Source of the DNA: Isoptericola dokdonensis DS-3
GTDB taxonomy: Bacteria; Actinomycetota; Actinomycetes; Actinomycetales; Cellulomonadaceae
Length of the DNA stretch: 64,000 nucleotides
Direction of reading: 5' to 3'
Assembly (NCBI RefSeq): GCF_001636295.1
Contig: NZ_CP014209.1
Location: forward strand, 3,038,001-3,102,000
Shown here: positions 11,941 to 64,000 of the stretch, piece after piece
Numbering within the stretch: position 1 is the stretch's first letter
Layout of the letters: each line of letters begins with the position of its first letter
Notes under the pieces: model-generated
Told to the model about the DNA's origin: nothing
Database searches by the model: none
What the model saw: the letters and a program-made list of their open reading frames with translations, nothing else
Made by a program: the position numbers and the translations under genes

Positions 11941-12050
11941 GAGTCAGCGCAGGTTGGCGCGAGTCAGCGCTGATTGGCGCGAGTCAGCGTGAACTTCGTT
12001 CAATCAGCGCAGGTGGGCGCCAGTCAGCACACGGCGGCGTGAGGCAGCGT
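11941..12050 (+). repeat. 20-bp period array A-left (6 units, GAGTCAGCGC orientation)
   Basis: Units related to GAGTCAGCGC begin at 11941, 11961, 11981, 12001, 12021 and 12041, exactly 20 bp apart, with 10-nt variable linkers. The last three units are degenerate (AATCAGCGC, CAGTCAGCAC, GAGGCAGCGT). No gene lies in the 606-nt gap 11881-12486, which holds only this array, two hairpins and array A-right. Confidence 0.9.
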
Positions 12051-12062
12051 GCTTCGGGTTCC

Positions 12063-12157
12063 GGACGGCGGAGGGTGCCGCGCGTCGTCGCGTTCACGGG
12101 CCCCAGGGGGCCCTCCACTTCGGGTTGGACGACGACGCGCGGCACCCTCCGCCGTCC
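12063..12157. repeat. Long hairpin element, copy 1
   Basis: Arms at 12063-12090 and 12130-12157 are perfect 28-bp inverted repeats, containing GGGTGCCGCGCGTCGTCG on the left. The loop is 39 nt and contains GGGCCCC-A-GGGGGCCC (12098-12113), which can pair with itself. A near-identical element occurs at 63096-63192. It is flanked by array A-left and array A-right, which run in opposite orientations. Confidence 0.9.
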
Positions 12158-12159
12158 TT

Positions 12160-12198
12160 CGTCGTCGTCACGTCGGGCTTGGGGTGTTGACGACGACG
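12160..12198. repeat. Secondary hairpin next to long hairpin copy 1
   Basis: Perfect 11-bp arms CGTCGTCGTCA (12160-12170) and TGACGACGACG (12188-12198) enclose a 17-nt loop. It starts two bases after the long hairpin. No equivalent is seen beside the second long hairpin copy. Confidence 0.7.
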
Positions 12199-12246
12199 GT
12201 GGCGGCGACAGCGAGGCAGTCGCGTCGGGCTGTCGTGCACGGTCGT

Positions 12247-12460
12247 GTGCTGACTGAACGACGTTCACGCTGACTCGCGCCCGCCTGTGCTAACTGGGTG
12301 AGAACTGCGCTGACTCGCGCCGTCGTGTGCTGACTGAACGACATTCACGCTGACTCGCGCCCGCTTGCGCTGACTGGGCGAGCCCTGCGCTGACTCGCGC
12401 CCGCTTGCGCTGACTCGCGTCGAACCGCGCTGACCGGCGGCCGATTGCGCTGACTCGGCG
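12247..12460 (-). repeat. 20-bp period array A-right (11 units, GCGCTGACTCGCG orientation)
   Basis: Cores starting TGACT (or variants TAACT, TGACC) lie at 12251, 12271, 12291, 12311, 12331, 12351, 12371, 12391, 12411, 12431 and 12451, exactly 20 bp apart. Orientation is opposite to array A-left. A 40-bp higher-order pattern appears: TGACTGAACG/TGACTCGCGC alternate, with ACGTTCACGC or ACATTCACGC linkers. The array ends 27 bp before the next start codon. Confidence 0.9.
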
Positions 12461-12899: not shown

Positions 12900-13388
12900 A
12901 TGGCGAGAACCAGCGCGGGGCTGCTGCTCTACCGTCTCGCCGGGCAGGCCCTCGAGGTGCTGGTCGGCCACATGGGCGGCCCCTTCTGGGCGCGCAAGGA
13001 CGCCGGCGCCTGGACGGTGCTCAAGGGTGAGGCGGAGGACGGCGAGGACCTGCACGCCGCCGCCGAGCGGGAAGCCGTCGAGGAGCTCGGCCTCGTCCTA
13101 CCGCCGTCGTCCGGCGACGTCGACCTGGGCGAGGTGCGGCAACGCTCCGGCAAACGCGTCGTCGCCTGGGCGCGGGAGTGGCCGCCGCCCGGTCCCGACC
13201 TCACGGCGGCGCGGAGCAACACCGTCGCGATCGAGTGGCCGCCGCGGTCCGGGCGCACCGTCGACGTTCCCGAGATCGACCGGTTCGCCTGGTTGGCGCC
13301 CGACGATGCGCGACGGCTGCTCGTCCCGGCCCAGGCCGCCTTCGTCGACCGACTGTGCGCGGCCGTCGCCCACGCGGAGGTGCGCTGA
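12900..13388 (+). CDS. NUDIX hydrolase
   Basis: A 162-residue pyrophosphohydrolase-fold protein with a complete Nudix box, GEAEDGEDLHAAAEREAVEELGL, at about residues 43-65. This fits GX5EX7REUXEEXGU. The N-terminal ARTSAGLLLYR and GGPFWARKDAGAWTVLKG resemble the predicted NTP pyrophosphohydrolases of this class. The substrate is unknown. Its stop codon TGA (13386-13388) is the TGA of the first unit of repeat array B. No Shine-Dalgarno is obvious; CACACT shortly before the ATG suggests leaderless expression. Confidence 0.9.
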   Translation: MARTSAGLLLYRLAGQALEVLVGHMGGPFWARKDAGAWTVLKGEAEDGEDLHAAAEREAVEELGLVLPPSSGDVDLGEVRQRSGKRVVAWAREWPPPGPDLTAARSNTVAIEWPPRSGRTVDVPEIDRFAWLAPDDARRLLVPAQAAFVDRLCAAVAHAEVR

Positions 13389-13480
13389 CTCGCGCCGTCG
13401 TGCGCTGACTGGCGCCGACCTGCGCTGACTGGCGGCCACCGGCGCTGACTCGTGCCGACCTGCGCTGACTCGCGCCGCGC
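13382..13480 (-). repeat. 20-bp period array B (5 units) between convergent genes
   Basis: TGACT cores lie at 13386, 13406, 13426, 13446 and 13466, exactly 20 bp apart, with GCGC before and CGCGC, GGCGC or GGCGG after. The first core supplies the stop codon of the NUDIX gene. The array fills the whole gap to the convergent gene ending at 13481. No long hairpin is present at this locus. Confidence 0.9.
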
Positions 13481-20540: not shown

Positions 20541-20591
20541 GCGCCGCGGCTCCTCAGGCATCGGTGCGTGATGCCTGAGGAACCGCGGCGC
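20541..20591. terminator. Long intergenic hairpin downstream of the subtilase
   Basis: Arms 20541-20561 and 20571-20591 are 21 bp with one mismatch, enclosing a 9-nt loop CGGTGCGTG. It lies 40 bases beyond the subtilase stop on the minus strand and 80 bases upstream of the acyltransferase start. The loop-stem junction holds GTGATGCCTGAGG, related to the GATGCGTGAGG repeats at 43871, 43933 and 56580. Confidence 0.75.
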
Positions 20592-20630
20592 GGGTCCGGC
20601 GTTCCTGCGGGGCTCACCGGGGAGGCCGGG

Positions 20631-43820: not shown

Positions 43821-43870
43821 TCGTCCCGGGGAGCTCGCCCGGCGCCGTCGTTCCTCCGGCGTCACGGTCT

Positions 43871-43956
43871 GATGCGTGAGGTGGTGCAGCGCGGGGCGTG
43901 GCCGCGCCGTCGCACCTCCCGCGTGACAGGTGGATGCGTGAGGTGGTGCAGCGCGG
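43871..43956. repeat. 24-bp direct repeat pair with GATGCGTGAGG core
   Basis: GATGCGTGAGGTGGTGCAGC followed by GCGG occurs identically at 43871-43894 and 43933-43956, 62 bp apart. An inverted relative (GCACCTCCCGCGTGAC) lies between them. Related GATGCGTGAGG or GATGCCTGAGG copies occur at 20570 and 56580, also intergenic. Confidence 0.75.
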
Positions 43957-43965
43957 CGGGTGGAG

Positions 43966-56455: not shown

Positions 56456-56579
56456 GGTGGCCACCCTAGGGCGACCGGTCCCGACGGGTGCTGCACCTTC
56501 TCCGCCGTCGGCGACCGATGGGTGAGGTTCCGCGGTGGCGTGAGGAGCGGCGCCGTGAATCCTCTGCCATCGGCGCGTG

Positions 56580-56600
56580 ATGCGTGAGGAGGTGCGTCGC
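56580..56600. repeat. GATGCGTGAGG-type repeat, third locus
   Basis: GATGCGTGAGGAGGTGCG at 56580-56597 matches the direct repeats at 43871 and 43933 over GATGCGTGAGG-N-GGTGC. A diverged GATGGGTGAGGTTCCGCGG lies at 56517 in the same 143-bp gap. All copies seen are intergenic. Confidence 0.5.
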
Positions 56601-56607
56601 CGCCGGG

Positions 56608-57516
56608 TCAGAGCCGTGCGGCCAGCGCGGTGAGGGTCGGGGTCACCCCGGCGTCGACCTTGACGGTCGCGAGCGGGTCGCCACGGGTCTCGCCCCGGTT
56701 GACGATGACGACCGGCATCCCGGCCTTCGCCGCGTGCCGCACGAACCGCAGCCCGCTCATCACGGTGAGGCTCGTACCCGCCACGAGCAGTGCGTCGGCC
56801 GAGTCGACCAGGTCGAAGGCCCGCCGCACCCGCTCGCGCGGCACGTTCTCCCCGAAGTAGACGATCTCCGGCTTGAGCACCCCGCCGCAGAACTCACAGT
56901 CCGCGGGCCGGAAGTGCGACGTCCGCTCGATGACGGCGTCGGCGTCGGGCGCCACCTCGATGTCCGCGACCGTCGTGCCGCCGTGGAGCACCGACTCCAC
57001 GAAGCCCGGGTTGAGCGCGTCCAGCCGCTCCGCGAGGTGCGCGCGCGAGATGACGCGCGAGCACTGGAGGCAGATGACGCGGTCGTAGCGTCCGTGCAGG
57101 TCGATGACGGTGCGCGAGCCGGCGTCCTCGTGCAGCAGGTCCACGTTCTGCGTGATGACGCCCCGCACGACGCCCCGCTCCTCCAGCTCCGCGAGCACCC
57201 GGTGCCCGGCGTTCGGGTGCGTGCGGCGCACGTGCTGCCAGCCCACGTGGTTGCGCGCCCAGTAATGGCGGCGGAACGCGTCGTCGCCGACGAACTGCTG
57301 GTACGTCATCGGGTTGCGCGGCGGCGAGTCGGGGGAGCGGTAGTCGGGGATGCCCGAGTCCGTGGAGACCCCCGCCCCGGTCAGCACGGTCAGGGTGCGG
57401 CCCTCCAGCACGCGGGCGGCGTCGTCCACCGTGCCGTGGTGCACCACCGCGTCCGGCGGCAGCTCCCAGCGGCGGTCCTGGTAGGTCGGGGCGAGCGGTC
57501 GGGCGGCGGGCTGCAC
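56608..57516 (-). CDS. Sir2-family NAD-dependent protein deacylase
   Basis: A 302-residue sirtuin. Motifs are GAGVSTDSGIPDYRSPDSPP (NAD loop), ITQNVDLLHEDAGS, catalytic His in DLHGRYD, zinc Cys pairs CLQC and CEFC, and PEIVYFGENVP followed by LLVAGTSLTV. The zinc-module insertion between the Cys pairs is longer than in small class III sirtuins. It removes acyl groups from protein lysines using NAD. Start is GTG 57516. No obvious operon partner. Confidence 0.95.
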   Translation of the reverse strand: MQPAARPLAPTYQDRRWELPPDAVVHHGTVDDAARVLEGRTLTVLTGAGVSTDSGIPDYRSPDSPPRNPMTYQQFVGDDAFRRHYWARNHVGWQHVRRTHPNAGHRVLAELEERGVVRGVITQNVDLLHEDAGSRTVIDLHGRYDRVICLQCSRVISRAHLAERLDALNPGFVESVLHGGTTVADIEVAPDADAVIERTSHFRPADCEFCGGVLKPEIVYFGENVPRERVRRAFDLVDSADALLVAGTSLTVMSGLRFVRHAAKAGMPVVIVNRGETRGDPLATVKVDAGVTPTLTALAARL

Positions 57517-59303: not shown

Positions 59304-62300
59304 ATGACACCGATCGGGCGGACCCTCCGCACGTCGCTGGCAGCCCTGGCCGCCGCGGCGCTCACCCTCACCCCCGCGGTCACCGCGTCCGCCGTCGGAC
59401 CGGCGGGCGCCTTCGACGCGAACGACCTCACCCCCGGCAACATCACCGCGGACCTCGTGGTGGGGGACTTCACCGTCAAGGCCACCGCCGCCAAGGGCGT
59501 GACCGTCGACGCGTCGGACCGCACCTCCGACCGCGGCGACGTCTACACCCAGCGCGTCAAGCTCAACGGCTCCGGCGACGCCGCCCAGCGCTCCCTGCAG
59601 CTCACCGCCGAGGGCCCCGGCGAGGTGATCGTCCACGCCCGCAGCGGCAGCGGCACCGCCGACCGCGCGCTCGCGCTCTACGACGCCGCGTGGACGCCGC
59701 TGGACACCGCGCCGGCGCTCGCCGACGACGGCAGCCGCACCATCACCACCGAGACCCTCGACATCCCGGCCGCCGGGACGTACTGGATCGCGTCCCCGAG
59801 CTCGGGCGTCAACCTCTACTACGCCGAGATCAGCGACGGCTCCGCGCCGCAGCGCGCCCCGTGGACCGACGTCGCCGCACCCGTCGTGGACGCCGTCGAG
59901 GTCGACCCGGCCGACCCGTCGAGCCTGCTCGTGCACTACACGGGTCTGCTCGGCGAGGACGGCGCCGACGTCGCGCACGCCGTCCTCACGGACGCCGCGG
60001 GCGCCGAGGTGGACCGCGCGTTCACCGCGACCGACGGCACCTCCGGCACGATCGCGCTGTCCCCGCCGTCGTCCGGCACCTACACCGTGCAGGTCGAGCT
60101 CACCCGCTCCGGGGAAGCCGACGGCCTCGTCTCCGAGCCCGTGGCCGCCCCCGCGTTCCGGCTGCCCCTCGGTGCGCCCGCCGTGACCGGGGCGCTGACC
60201 TCCGGCGTGAGCGGCGGCCAGGCCACCGTCACCGTCGACTGGGGCGCCGTCGCCGAGGCCGAGACCTACTCGGTGCAGACCGCCCAGGGTGGCGACTTCA
60301 CGGACGCCGTCACCGGCGTCACCGGCACCACCGCGGACGTCGCCGGCCTCACGCCGGGCGGCGTCTACCAGGTGCGCGTCGTCGCCCACCGCGGCACCGA
60401 CTCCACCGCGGGCGAGCCGACCGAGGTCACCGTGGCCGCCGCCGTCGAGCGCTGGCAGTCCGCCGACATCGGCTCCAACGCGAACTCCGGCGGGTCGATC
60501 GTCGAGAACGCCGACGGCACCATCACGTTCGACGCGCGCGCCAGCTCGACCAAGCTCGCCTCCTCCGAGGACGGGTTCCAATACCACTACACGGAGATCG
60601 ACCCCGAGACGGAGAACTTCACGCTCACCGCGACGTTCACCGTGGACGACGCCGCCGCGAAGGACAACCAGTCCGGCTTCGGCGTGCTCGCCGTCGACAC
60701 CCTCACCCCCGGCGTCTCCGCCGCCCGCTACATGAACTCCGCGGGCGCCCTCATCACCCGCTACGGCGAGGGCACCGGCACCGTGAGCGACGGCACCCCC
60801 GGCGCGCGGTTCGTGCACGGGTACACCGGCGCACCGACCGACAACACCGCCGGGGCGCGCGACTCCTCCGACTCGGTCGTCTTCGACGAGACGTGGCGCT
60901 CCGACGTCGCGACCGGCCCCAAGTTCGCCACCGGCGACGTGTTCACGCTCAGCCTGCGCAAGTCGAACACCGGCTACCACGCGACCTGGCTGCGTGACGC
61001 CGCCGACGGCGGGGACGTCGAGGTCATCCAGTACGACCCCGACATGCTGCTCCAGCAGGACGGCGAGCGCCTCTACGTCGGCATGGCCGTCGCCCGCAAG
61101 ATCATGGTGACGGTCTCCGACTGGGAGCTCACCACGATCCTGCCGGCCGACGACGAGGCCGCCCAGGAGCCGCCGACCGAGTACGTCCCGGCGACCCTCG
61201 GCGTCGACATCACCTCGACGACGCCGCACGACAGCCTCGACATCCCCCTCGTCGCGAACATGTACGGCACCGGGCAGATCCTCGACGCCGCCGGTGACGT
61301 CGTCGTCGACGGCGTCGCGCTCGCTCCCGGCGAGCGGGCGCTCGCCACCGTGGAGCTGGCCGACGGCGTCAACGAGCTCACCGCGCGGCTCCTCCCGGAC
61401 GCCGAGCAGCCGCACCTCGGCGAGCGGGAGGAGATCGAGTCCACCGACCCGGTCGACGTGCCGCTCACCATCACGGTGAAGGCGTACGGCGAGCCCGGCC
61501 AGTCCCTCCGGGTCGCGCCCGACGGCACCCCCGACGGCGCCGGCACCACCGCCGACCCGCTCGACCTGCACACCGCCGTGGGCTTCGCCCAGCCCGGCCA
61601 GCAGATCGTGCTCGCCGGCGGCGACTACGCCCTCGACCGCAAGGTCGTCGTCGAGCGCGGCCGCGACGGCACGCCCGACGCGCCCATCACGCTCATGTCC
61701 GAGCCGGGGGCCCGCGCGACCCTCGACCTCGCCGGTTCGCCCGACGGCGGACTCGTGCTCCGCGGCGACTGGTGGCACGTCTACGACCTGGAGATCACCG
61801 GGTCGCGCGACAAGGCCAAGCCGATGCTCATCGAGGGCAACCACAACGTCGTCGAACGCGTCGAGTCGCACCACAACGCCGACACCGGCATCCAGATCTC
61901 CGGCCGCAGCGCCGAGCCGCCGTCGATGTGGCCGTCGCACAACCTCGTCGTGTCCTCCGAGTCGCACAACAACGCCGACCCGGGCGGCAACGACGCGGAC
62001 GGGTTCGGCGTCAAGCTCACCGTCGGCGAGGGCAACGTGCTGCGGCACAACATCGCCCACCACAACATCGACGACGGCTGGGACCTCTACGCCAAGTCGA
62101 CCACCGGACCCATCGGCACCGTGATCGTCGAGGACTCCGTCGCGTACGCCAACGGGTTCCTCGAGGCCGACCCGAGCAAGACGGGCGAGGGCAACGGGTT
62201 CAAGCTCGGCGGCGAGTCCATGCCGGGCGACCACCTGCTGCGCAACTCGCTCAGCTATGGCAACCTCGGCACCGGCGTCACGTCGAACTCCGGGCCCGAC

Positions 62301-63011
62301 GTCCGGCTGCGCGACGTCACCACCGTCAGCAACGACCGCGGCGTCCGCCTCGAGACCAACGCCGCCACCACGGCGTACGAGGCGACCGGCGTCATCTCCT
62401 GGCAGAACCCCACCGTCGACCTGCTCGACCTCCAGCAGGCCGACACCTCCCTGCTGACCGACCCGTCGAACCACTGGCACCTCGGCGCCGGGACCGACGT
62501 CGACGCCTCCTGGTTCGTCTCCACCGACGAGACCCTGCGCCCCGAGATCGCCGCCGACGGATCCGTCGAGATGCACGGGCTCTACGAGCTGACCGACGCC
62601 GCACCGGCCGACACGGGCGCACGCTTCGTGCCCGTCGAGGACCCGACCGTCATCGACGTCCTGCCCGAGGTCTCCGCCGGCGAGCCCGGCCCCGCCGCCT
62701 GGTACGACACCGCCGTGTACGTGCGTGGCGACGTCGTCCAGCACGACGGCGTCGTCTACGAGGCCCGCTGGTGGACCCGCAACCAGGAGCCCGGTGCCCC
62801 CGGCTACGGGCCGTGGGCGGAGGTCGGCCCCGCCGACGCCGCCCCCGCCGTCGCCGAGTGCGCCCCCGCCTGGGACCCGCGGACCGTCTACACCGGCGGA
62901 GAGATCGTCTCCTTCGACGGCCTCAACCACCGCGCCCTGTGGTGGACGCTCCGCCAGGAGCCGGGTGCCTCCGTCTGGGGTGCCTGGTCGGCGGTCGAGG
63001 CCTGCGCCTGA
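59304..63011 (+). CDS. Secreted pectate lyase (PL9-type) with two CBM5/12-like modules
   Basis: A 1235-residue secreted enzyme. The signal peptide covers about 1-31. Beta-sandwich regions follow, one of them fibronectin-III-like at about 293-380, then a laminin-like jelly-roll region. The right-handed parallel beta-helix at about 740-1080 has PL9 hallmarks: RVESHHNADTGIQISGR near 852, NNADPGGNDADGFGVKL and DDGWDLYAKS near 923-930, where the Lys is the probable catalytic base. It should cleave polygalacturonate by beta-elimination using calcium. Two C-terminal Trp-rich modules of about 45 residues (YVRGDVVQHDGVVYEARWWT, then YTGGEIVSFDGLNHRALWWT) are CBM5/12-like. GAGGAG precedes ATG 59304. 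Confidence 0.88.
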   Translation: MTPIGRTLRTSLAALAAAALTLTPAVTASAVGPAGAFDANDLTPGNITADLVVGDFTVKATAAKGVTVDASDRTSDRGDVYTQRVKLNGSGDAAQRSLQLTAEGPGEVIVHARSGSGTADRALALYDAAWTPLDTAPALADDGSRTITTETLDIPAAGTYWIASPSSGVNLYYAEISDGSAPQRAPWTDVAAPVVDAVEVDPADPSSLLVHYTGLLGEDGADVAHAVLTDAAGAEVDRAFTATDGTSGTIALSPPSSGTYTVQVELTRSGEADGLVSEPVAAPAFRLPLGAPAVTGALTSGVSGGQATVTVDWGAVAEAETYSVQTAQGGDFTDAVTGVTGTTADVAGLTPGGVYQVRVVAHRGTDSTAGEPTEVTVAAAVERWQSADIGSNANSGGSIVENADGTITFDARASSTKLASSEDGFQYHYTEIDPETENFTLTATFTVDDAAAKDNQSGFGVLAVDTLTPGVSAARYMNSAGALITRYGEGTGTVSDGTPGARFVHGYTGAPTDNTAGARDSSDSVVFDETWRSDVATGPKFATGDVFTLSLRKSNTGYHATWLRDAADGGDVEVIQYDPDMLLQQDGERLYVGMAVARKIMVTVSDWELTTILPADDEAAQEPPTEYVPATLGVDITSTTPHDSLDIPLVANMYGTGQILDAAGDVVVDGVALAPGERALATVELADGVNELTARLLPDAEQPHLGEREEIESTDPVDVPLTITVKAYGEPGQSLRVAPDGTPDGAGTTADPLDLHTAVGFAQPGQQIVLAGGDYALDRKVVVERGRDGTPDAPITLMSEPGARATLDLAGSPDGGLVLRGDWWHVYDLEITGSRDKAKPMLIEGNHNVVERVESHHNADTGIQISGRSAEPPSMWPSHNLVVSSESHNNADPGGNDADGFGVKLTVGEGNVLRHNIAHHNIDDGWDLYAKSTTGPIGTVIVEDSVAYANGFLEADPSKTGEGNGFKLGGESMPGDHLLRNSLSYGNLGTGVTSNSGPDVRLRDVTTVSNDRGVRLETNAATTAYEATGVISWQNPTVDLLDLQQADTSLLTDPSNHWHLGAGTDVDASWFVSTDETLRPEIAADGSVEMHGLYELTDAAPADTGARFVPVEDPTVIDVLPEVSAGEPGPAAWYDTAVYVRGDVVQHDGVVYEARWWTRNQEPGAPGYGPWAEVGPADAAPAVAECAPAWDPRTVYTGGEIVSFDGLNHRALWWTLRQEPGASVWGAWSAVEACA

Positions 63012-63020
63012 CGAGCGTGT

Positions 63021-63057
63021 GCTGACCGACGCCGGCTTCGAGCTGGCGTCGGTCAGC
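63021..63057 (+). terminator. Terminator of the pectate lyase gene
   Basis: Perfect 13-bp arms GCTGACCGACGCC (63021-63033) and GGCGTCGGTCAGC (63045-63057) are followed by TTT, ten bases after the stop. Confidence 0.85.
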
Positions 63058-63095
63058 TTTCCGCTCGGTGTCAGGTCCGGTGTGGGTGTCGGTCC

Positions 63096-63192
63096 GGCCG
63101 GTGGAGGGGTGCCGCGCGTCGTCGCGTTCACGGGCCCCAGGGGGCCCTCCACTCCCGGTCTGACGACGACGCGCGGCACCCCTCCACCGGCC
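63096..63192. repeat. Long hairpin element, copy 2
   Basis: Perfect 29-bp arms (63096-63124 and 63164-63192) enclose a 39-nt loop, the same loop length as copy 1 at 12063-12157. The first 29 loop bases and the inner stem (GGTGCCGCGCGTCGTCG) are identical in both. The outer stem differs, GGACGGCGGA in copy 1 and GGCCGGTGGAG here, yet pairs fully in each. The gap 63012-63603 holds no gene, only the terminator, this hairpin and arrays C-left and C-right. Confidence 0.9.
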
Positions 63193-63221
63193 TTCGGCGT
63201 CCGGGCCTGCACCCTTGGCGC

Positions 63222-63433
63222 GAGTCAGCGCAGGTCCAGCCGAGTCAGCGCAAGAAACGGCCAGTCAGCGCAGGTCGGCGCGAGTCAGCGTACGAAACGG
63301 CCAGTCATCGCAAGCGGGTGGTCAGTCAGCGCAAGAGCTGCCGAGTCAGCGTAAGTAGGGACCAGTCAGCGCTCGTGTTCGTCAGTCAGCGCAGATGGGC
63401 GCGAGTCAGCGCAAGGAACGGCGAGTCAGCGCG
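63222..63433 (+). repeat. 20-bp period array C-left (11 units, GAGTCAGCGC orientation)
   Basis: Units related to GAGTCAGCGCA begin at 63222, 63242, 63262, 63282, 63302, 63323, 63343, 63363, 63383, 63403 and 63423. All steps are 20 bp except one of 21. Linkers recur in a few forms (CAAGAAACGGC, TACGAAACGGC, CAAGGAACGGC). Confidence 0.92.
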
Positions 63434-63450
63434 GACTTCGAGAAGACCTT

Positions 63451-63600
63451 GCGCTGACTCGCGCTCGCCTGCGCTGACTCGCGCTCGCCTGCGCTGACTC
63501 GCGCTCGCTTGCGCTGACTCGCGCTCGCTTGCGCTGACTCGCGCTCGCTTGCGCTGAATCGCGCCGTCGTGCGCTGACTCGCGCTGGTTTGCGCTGACTC
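63451..63600 (-). repeat. 20-bp period array C-right (8 units, GCGCTGACTCGCG orientation)
   Basis: GCGCTGACTC (once GCGCTGAATC) begins at 63451, 63471, 63491, 63511, 63531, 63551, 63571 and 63591, exactly 20 bp apart. It points against array C-left with an 18-bp gap between them. Five consecutive linkers are GCGCTCGCCT or GCGCTCGCTT, so these are recent duplications. The array ends three bases before the stop codon of the convergent gene. Confidence 0.93.
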
Positions 63601-63603
63601 GCG

Positions 63604-64000
63604 TCAGGCGTCGGTCGTCGTCCCGTCCGTCGTGCCCGACGTCGTGCCCGACGTCGTGCCCGACGTCGTGCCGTCGGTGGTGCCGCCGGGCAGCTGGCCG
63701 CCCTCGGGCGGGGTCACACCCTCCGGCAGCTCGCCCTCGGGCGGGGTGCCGCCGCCGGGCCGCTGCCCGCCGCCGGGGCCGCCACCCATGGTGCCGGTCA
63801 CCGACTCCTCGGCGGTGGCGGTGCCGACCTGCTCGCCGTCGACGAGCACCGTCACCTCGTCGCCCGCGGTCATGCCGTCGGCGGTGAACCCGAGCGACGA
63901 CGTCTCCCGCGTCAGCTCGACGGACGCCAGTGTCTCGCCGTCCGACGACGCGACCTCGACCGTGGCGCCCGCCGCGACGGACGCGTCCAGGCTCGCCCAG
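63604..64000 (-). CDS. C-terminal part of a Gly/Pro/Thr-rich, probably secreted protein (5' end beyond the window)
   Basis: The frame runs in from the right edge; 131 residues are visible. A beta-rich segment (WASLDASVAAGATVEVASSD, LGFTADGMTAGDEVTVLVDG) is followed by GGGPGGGQRPGGGTPPEGEL and a Thr/Gly tail with TTSGTTSGTTSGTTDGTT. This resembles the tails of carbohydrate-binding (DUF4353) proteins that accompany CotH kinases, but this is tentative. The tail is encoded by tandem 12- to 15-bp DNA repeats (GACGTCGTGCCC) near 63634-63672. The stop lies next to repeat array C-right. Confidence 0.6.
   Translation of the reverse strand, partial: WASLDASVAAGATVEVASSDGETLASVELTRETSSLGFTADGMTAGDEVTVLVDGEQVGTATAEESVTGTMGGGPGGGQRPGGGTPPEGELPEGVTPPEGGQLPGGTTDGTTSGTTSGTTSGTTDGTTTDA

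What the first reader, a model, noticed from the sequence alone, without database searches (positions are those of the whole stretch)
63096..63600. Second full repeat locus: hairpin plus facing arrays (locus C)
The same components recur 51 kb away: the long hairpin, eleven GAGTCAGCGC units and eight GCGCTGACTC units facing each other, all inside one 590-bp gap between convergent genes. The order differs (hairpin first, then both arrays), so the parts behave as modules. Facing arrays could form a large cruciform or an RNA stem if transcribed. Together with locus A this looks like a defined multi-part element rather than chance repeats.
Basis: partly seen in the sequence, partly recalled or inferred. 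Interest (0 to 1): 0.85.

Follow-up and report, generated by a model that had tools for sequence, protein, structure and literature searches.

The report
Gene-end repeat arrays with species dialects
Short signposts repeated every 20 letters sit at the ends of genes all over this bacterium's chromosome, and related species carry the same kind of signposts at many of the same places but spelled differently, which suggests that something unknown reads them.

Summary
In detail: locus C holds a 97-bp hairpin, eleven GAGTCAGCGC-type and eight GCGCTGACTC-type units in a 592-bp gap between convergent genes. It is one of roughly 80 such places in a 3.83-Mb actinobacterial chromosome. Units have a 20-bp period, a constrained core and a free spacer, and lie at gene ends (464-kb sample: convergent gaps 9/64, tandem 8/266, divergent 0/65). 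Arrays of the generic form CTNNCTCG with the same period occur in 14 of 18 genomes of the genus, but the core is a species dialect (CTGACTCG here, CTACCTCG in eleven others). Of 7 comparable gaps with an array here, 6 hold one, in the other dialect, in relative G017 at 76% protein identity (convergent gaps: 5 shared, 12 empty, 0 discordant). In four species no array was found. The hairpin is a second module: arms covary, the apical part is conserved, and it is found in 17 of 18 genomes, array-less ones included; it is tied to arrays only in some lineages. So: two modules sharing one niche, strongly associated here. Best reading: helically phased binding-site arrays for an unidentified sequence-specific factor acting where transcription ends. 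No factor was found; the tyrosine transposase of REP elements is absent (0 of 18).

The parts
63096..63192 (+). Locus C hairpin: covarying outer stem with conserved apical part GTTCACGGGC...GCCCTCCACT at 63126-63153
63222..63432 (-). Locus C '<' array: eleven GAGTCAGCGC-type units, period 20 (one step of 21)
63451..63600 (+). Locus C '>' array: eight GCGCTGACTC-type units, 20-bp period
59304..63011 (+). Gene on the left of locus C, pointing into it (ends TGA)
   Evidence: own gene caller
63604..64000 (-). 3' part of the convergent gene on the right (runs on beyond the window); its stop codon lies three bases from the last unit
11941..12050 (-). Locus A '<' array: three clear units to 11990, three degenerate ones after (by eye)
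12063..12166 (+). Locus A hairpin
12248..12458 (+). Locus A '>' array; the first unit or two degenerate
13382..13473 (+). Locus B: five '>' units, no hairpin; the stop codon TGA of the gene 12900-13388 lies inside the first unit. The orthologous gene end carries an array in 5 of 12 other species (G008, G017, G003, G004, G010)

Best explanation
Locus C is one of roughly 80 extragenic places that carry tandem arrays of a roughly 10-bp core (frame CTNNCTCG) on a 20-bp period, about two helical turns. Shown: the arrays sit at gene 3' ends and between convergent genes; core and spacing are held while spacers drift; the core is species-specific; arrays stay at orthologous gaps although the core has changed; in some species none is found. 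Inferred: the units are binding sites, phased on the helix, for an unidentified sequence-specific DNA-binding factor whose recognition has changed between lineages, the genome's arrays following it; facing arrays at converging transcription units most likely act as a two-way stop or insulator (roadblock to RNA polymerase, possibly also a supercoil sink). The hairpin is a separate structured module that occupies the same niche and in this lineage is embedded in the arrays.
For: Gap class: arrays in 9/64 convergent, 8/266 tandem, 0/65 divergent gaps of a 464-kb stretch (p = 4e-4 for convergent against the rest); in 480 kb of G017 12/79, 11/264, 5/80 (an earlier gene call gave 10/65, 7/265, 0/65 for G000). 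Core constraint: in near-duplicate units of the same array (1-3 differences), differences fall core:spacer 27:81 (G000) and 37:95 (G017) where 60% would be core if neutral (p about 1e-13). Spacing: 79 of 88 (G000) and 147 of 172 (G017) neighbouring same-strand units within 110 bp lie exactly 20 bp apart although spacers differ. Dialects: GCGCTGACT pairs in 2/18 genus genomes, CTACCTCG pairs in 11 others, the generic frame in 14/18, with CCTGACTCG in G013; none of the 18 holds both of the first two patterns. Positional conservation across dialects, G000 against G017: 145 orthologous gaps, both 6, G000 only 1, G017 only 3, neither 135; convergent only: 5 both, 12 neither, 0 discordant, p = 1.6e-4; gene-3'-end table 11/4/10/199, p = 2.9e-10. 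The exact core avoids genes: 67 outside, 1 inside in G000, with 88% of the stretch coding.
Against: No factor was identified and none could be sought by gene content. In four of 18 species no array was found, so the function is dispensable. The '<>' order (12:0 in G017, 6:1 in G000) and the strong fold fit an RNA stem at least as well. G017 has arrays in 5 of 80 divergent gaps. Pairs in the near-duplicate test are not independent, and units were picked with at most 2 mismatches to the core, which trims core differences somewhat. An exact period could partly reflect recent duplication. Shared positions could be repeated invasion of permissive gaps; the ortholog tests use 12% and 15% of two genomes, and the G000-G003 comparison (22 gaps) showed no shared gap and the 3'-end table there is not significant (p = 0.15). 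Gene calls come from a simple script of mine.
Confidence: 0.45

Rival explanations
1. RNA-level: the facing arrays and the hairpin are modular stem-loops in 3' UTRs that terminate transcription in both directions or are cut by a double-strand RNase; the core is a conserved stem.
For: Locus C arrays fold as one stem, z = -14.1; facing order '<>' 12:0 in G017 and 6:1 in G000; in G017 the array next to a gene 3' end reads CGAGGTAG in the gene's sense 28:6; in L212 (G410), L215 (G004), L225 (G413) and L327 (G440) facing units are palindromic including their spacers (by eye); the hairpin has covarying arms (own 92% paired against 62% when swapped).
Against: Many arrays run one way only (6 of 17 array gaps in G000, 16 of 28 in G017; locus B) and cannot form such a stem; spacers of the two locus C arrays are mostly not complementary; no T tract; orientation next to gene ends is not significant in G000 (13:8); tandem-gap hairpins show no strand preference (7 against 9); a stem alone does not explain a species-wide dialect or a fixed 20-bp period.
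Confidence: 0.25
2. Selfish or neutral extragenic repeat family (REP/BIME- or satellite-like): units spread and amplify by slippage and recombination and persist only where harmless, after stop codons; dialects arise by replacement of one variant by another.
For: Local tandem amplification is plain (identical neighbouring units and 40-bp alternations); arrays avoid genes; none found in 4 of 18 species; the six G014 gaps orthologous to G000 array gaps are short, -4 to 143 bp.
Against: Position-dependent constraint within duplicated units and fixed spacing despite spacer drift are not expected of neutral copies; no Y1 transposase family match in 18 genomes; 6 of 7 shared gaps at 76% protein identity.
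Confidence: 0.2
3. DNA-uptake-sequence-like signals with species dialects that bias natural transformation.
For: Species dialects of a short core, inverted pairs associated with terminators and a stop codon in nearly all dialects are described for the uptake sequences of Neisseriaceae (PMC3630211, passages seen).
Against: Uptake sequences are commonly intragenic too (same passages); here 1 of 68 exact cores in G000 and 10 of 154 in G017 are. Units are clustered in 20-bp arrays at roughly 80 places instead of spread through the genome. No receptor was sought.
Confidence: 0.05

Closest known systems
REP / BIME elements of enterobacteria and pseudomonads (PMC3733652: abstract start and passages; PMC2817692 and PMC8266576: listing and abstract start only)
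   Same: Extragenic, gene 3' ends, convergent or tandem rather than divergent gaps (the last point recalled), clusters in both orientations, many copies, proposed roles in termination and supercoiling.
   Different: Units are not palindromes but direct repeats with a 20-bp period; the dialect here has no GTAG or CGTC tag; no Y1 transposase match in 18 of 18 genomes.
DNA uptake sequence dialects of Neisseriaceae (PMC3630211, passages)
   Same: Short species-specific core with dialects; inverted pairs at terminators; stop codon in the core.
   Different: Tandem 20-bp arrays; almost absent from genes; far fewer loci (recalled for Neisseria); no known uptake function.
Neisseria intergenic mosaic elements, pneumococcal BOX, cyanobacterial STRR (all recalled, not looked up)
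   Same: Modular intergenic repeats with tandem sub-units.
   Different: None is known to me with a dialect that changes genome-wide while positions are kept.
Iteron or centromere arrays of plasmids (recalled)
   Same: Direct repeats of about 20 bp, two helical turns, bound by one protein.
   Different: One locus per replicon, whereas here roughly 80 places are spread over a chromosome at gene ends.

Membership tests
REP / BIME | Extragenic, at gene 3' ends, not in divergent gaps | tested here: met
   0/65 divergent gaps in G000; but 5/80 in G017
REP / BIME | Palindromic unit of 20-40 bp with GTAG or CGTC tag | tested here: not met
   Units are direct repeats with a non-palindromic core; GAGTCAGCGC holds no such tag, although CGAGGTAG of the other dialect contains GTAG
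REP / BIME | REP-associated tyrosine transposase in the genome | tested here: not met
   PF01797: 0 of 18 genus genomes (two of them incomplete, 74% and 86%); control rings in 5 of 14
DNA uptake sequence | Species-specific dialects of a short core | tested here: met
DNA uptake sequence | Copies within genes as well as between them | tested here: not met
   1 of 68 exact cores inside genes in G000; 10 of 154 in G017
DNA uptake sequence | Enhances DNA uptake through a pilin receptor | not testable with these tools
   needs transformation assays
Intrinsic transcription terminator | GC-rich stem-loop followed by a T run | tested here: not met
   0 sites in 62900-63700; stems present, no T run; other loci not scanned
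Known RNA family (Rfam) for the hairpin | Match at the family's gathering score | tested here: not met
   12 hairpin loci scanned in E-value mode (up to 1 and up to 0.1); weak matches only, mostly microRNA models, all below gathering score

The most novel reading that the evidence does not exclude
A group of bacteria carries a chromosome-wide, gene-end array code read by one unknown factor: phased binding arrays at roughly 80 places whose core was rewritten at orthologous gaps when the factor's specificity changed, and which vanish from the genome where the factor is lost, a bacterial counterpart of the co-evolution of satellites with their binding proteins.
Probability: 0.33. Interest if true: 0.9.

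Novelty: new variant of a known kind. Interest (0 to 1): 0.72.

Why it matters
Extragenic repeat families are often explained as products of transposition. Here the sequence changes between species while many of the places do not, the core is held while the spacer drifts, and the REP transposase is absent. That makes a directly testable case for a trans-acting reader of gene ends in high-GC bacteria. The covarying hairpin with a conserved apical part (17 of 18 genomes, no Rfam match above gathering score in the 12 loci scanned) is a second element, not described as far as I could find, worth its own study.

Tried and rejected
RAYT/REP origin: no PF01797 match in 18 genomes. Known RNA: no Rfam family above gathering score in 12 hairpin loci. 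Strand domains along the chromosome: suggested by the listings, but an artefact of truncated listings that put one strand first; dropped. Uptake-signal reading: core almost absent from genes. An element-encoded factor next to the few arrays of low-copy relatives: in ten loci the flanking genes look ordinary and differ from locus to locus (read by eye, no family scan). Named relatives: the pattern scan of named genomes gave 0 (the own genome may be left out there) and the second scan returned Cellulomonas, Oerskovia and more distant bacteria but, as far as identity shows, no record of the genus; the genus name is therefore not established. A lag scan of 65 named loci found no 20-bp array at its threshold. 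Literature: searches listed no paper that by its title and abstract start deals with these arrays, and one search had no hit; subscription journals and preprints are not held, so absence from print is not claimed. The tree of the gene 12900-13388 covers 13 of 18 species, is one short gene with low support, and is used only as a hint that the array-less G002, G009 and G014 are not one clade. In one search loci on the minus strand were read the wrong way round; one search corrects this. Gene names used in the notes (NUDIX, S4) are by eye; no protein family library was scanned.

Full report
What is there. Locus C (63096-63600) consists of a 97-bp hairpin, eleven '<' units (GAGTCAGCGC type) and eight '>' units (GCGCTGACTC type) in a 592-bp gap between convergent genes. 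Locus A has the order '<', hairpin, '>' between two co-oriented genes; a third array, locus B at 13382-13473, has '>' units only.

Genome scale. The window is 3038001-3102000 of a single 3,826,972-bp contig. The 14-mer GCGCTGACTCGCGC occurs 189 times and never backwards; pairs of GCGCTGACT 20 bp apart occur 265 times. Places with such a 14-mer or pair that were listed, merged within 2 kb, number 71 over the first 3.5 Mb (the listings were capped, and some places hold a single exact 14-mer), hence 'roughly 80', an extrapolation. The hairpin query gave 44 rows; I dropped three that repeat or adjoin another row, leaving 41, a lower bound because only 40 of 126 candidates were scored. In the 30 hairpin loci fetched, most show '<<<[hairpin]>>>' or '[hairpin]<<<>>>' or a part of these; exceptions are L024 ('>>[hairpin]'), L021 (one '<' among the '>'), L022 and L026 (units only at a distance), and L018, L025, L027, L028, L029 (no units).

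Where arrays sit. In 464 kb of this genome arrays (at least 2 units) lie in 9 of 64 convergent, 8 of 266 tandem and 0 of 65 divergent gaps; in 480 kb of G017 in 12 of 79, 11 of 264 and 5 of 80 (my own gene caller). Exact cores are outside genes 67 times and inside once in G000, 144 and 10 in G017; in a genome with the other dialect or none they occur 0-1 times outside genes. Often the gene's stop codon is part of a unit at the array edge: TGA in GCGCTGACTC here (3 gene ends), TAG in CGAGGTAG in G017, where 9 gene ends fall in the first unit and 2 in the second.

Anatomy of the unit. Information is 1.2-2.0 bits at each position of GCGCTGACTCG and mostly 0.1-0.6 bits in the spacer (126 units picked with at most 2 mismatches to the core, so the core figure is partly selected). 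When two units of one array differ at only 1-3 positions, the differences avoid the core (27 core, 81 spacer in G000; 37 and 95 in G017; 5 and 26 in G008; 0 and 4 in G003). Mere copying would not know core from spacer, so the core is under constraint, with the caveats that the pairs are not independent and the same selection applies. Neighbouring units are exactly 20 bp apart in 79 of 88 cases in G000 and 147 of 172 in G017.

Dialects. Looking at the same gene ends in relatives showed 20-bp arrays with other cores: GCGCTACCTCG in G017, GAACTACCTCG in G003, GTACTACCTCG in G010, GCGCTACCTCG in G004, and units of the kind GCCTACCTCG in G001 on the far side of the neighbouring gene. Counts of CTACCTCG pairs: G017 286, G007 226, G016 179, G005 171, G010 163, G003 140, G001 121, G015 114, G004 98, G012 46, G011 14; zero in G000, G008, G013, G002, G009, G006, G014; 4 of 30 other genomes of the family (28, 7, 1, 1) and 0 of 30 of other families; reversed control 0 in all 78 genomes. 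A generic three-unit pattern CTNNCTCG found 14 of 18 genus genomes (G013 with CCTGACTCG, locus L324), 5 of 72 other genomes of the family and 0 of 58 of other families in the order; the reversed control gave 1-2 hits in four genomes. G002, G006, G009 and G014 gave none with any of the three patterns, and 480 kb of G014 showed no excess at lag 20; a dialect outside the frame is excluded only there. In 80 kb of G005, which has arrays elsewhere, none was seen either, so small samples prove little.

Same places, different spelling. Between G000 and G017 (224 reciprocal best hits, median identity 76%), 145 gaps are orthologous: array in both 6, in G000 only 1, in G017 only 3, in neither 135. Within convergent gaps it is 5, 0, 0 and 12. 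Counting gene 3' ends gives 11, 4, 10 and 199 (p = 2.9e-10). Smaller comparisons: G003 against G017, 2 shared and no discordant of 21 gaps; G003 against G000, none shared and 1 discordant of 22. In the sister species G008 (87.5% identity in the sample) locus C is present in the same orientation, hairpin, then a long '<' run, then '>', with about seven further '<' units before the hairpin; a stretch holding the hairpin aligns at 82% over 186 columns while no spacer is identical by eye. Positions are stable, units turn over and the core changes as a whole. In 464 kb of G000 outside genes there is no exact CGCTACCTCG and one GCGCTACCTC.

The hairpin. Fifty-five copies from the genus and two other genera were collected with the pattern GTTCACGGGC...GCCCTCCACT allowing one mismatch per half, so those positions are conserved partly by selection; but the flanking GC before it and CGGG after it, which were not selected for, are also fixed or nearly so (48-55 of 55). 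The stem positions -29 to -2 are paired in at least 89% of copies, with three or four kinds of pair at most positions from -29 to -6. Swapping arms between copies lowers pairing from 92% to 62% (54 copies). The exact pattern occurs in 17 of 18 genus genomes (not in G016, 74% complete) and in G409 and G421, and in 0 of 30 genomes of other families. In copies away from arrays the apical part mostly lies 31-79 nt after a stop codon; 33 of 50 copies with gene context are between convergent genes, and in tandem gaps there is no strand preference (7 against 9). It is tied to arrays in G000 (23 of 30 loci); of the 30 loci fetched by the pattern, 5 of 5 in G007, G008 and G012, 1 of 2 in G010, 1 of 2 in G000 and 0 of 21 in 14 other genomes have array units in register within 450 bp.

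How it works. I favour phased binding sites for an unknown factor at transcription ends (0.45). The RNA-stem reading (0.25) explains the facing order and the fold but not the one-way arrays (6 of 17 array gaps in G000, 16 of 28 in G017), the 20-bp period or the dialects. The neutral or selfish reading (0.2) explains amplification and loss but not the constraint on core and spacing. No factor was found.

Limits.

Noticed in passing
G000 whole chromosome; dnaA at 2665347-2665832: Hairpins and arrays are scarce in the fifth of the chromosome furthest from dnaA: 1 of 41 hairpins (p = 0.003) and 4 of 71 array places (p = 3e-4; list incomplete beyond 3.5 Mb). Cause unknown.
   Followed up: partly
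window 20541-20602, 43842-43903, 43904-43965, 56550-56611: A further dispersed repeat of 62 nt that looks by eye like another stem-loop family with a shared middle and differing arms (D7).
   Followed up: no
window 12240-12360; L009; G008 933-bp gap: A composite unit recurs in arrays of both GCGCTGAC-dialect species, with a small palindrome of the kind TGAAC...GTTCA in place of the usual spacer between two cores (by eye).
   Followed up: no
G008:C1:955971/956434, 3428884/3429338, 3496086/3496543; G005:C1:3028204/3028359; G014:C1:4018526/4019116; G000 1711986/1712240: Hairpins sometimes come as facing pairs about 150-600 bp apart, as if each of two convergent genes had its own copy.
   Followed up: no
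G017 stretch 2980001-3060000 (L126-L129), gap of 506 bp: Another long hairpin of a different sequence stands beside an array; whether it is multi-copy was not tested.
   Followed up: no
window 63616-63684: 12-bp tandem repeat inside the C-terminal coding end of the right-hand gene, encoding a G/T/S/D-rich tail.
   Followed up: no
L215 (G004), L225 and L238 (G413), L212 (G410), L327 (G440): In G004 and in other genera of the family, facing units are palindromic including their spacers, suggesting that arrays may start as simple stem-loops at gene ends (read by eye).
   Followed up: partly
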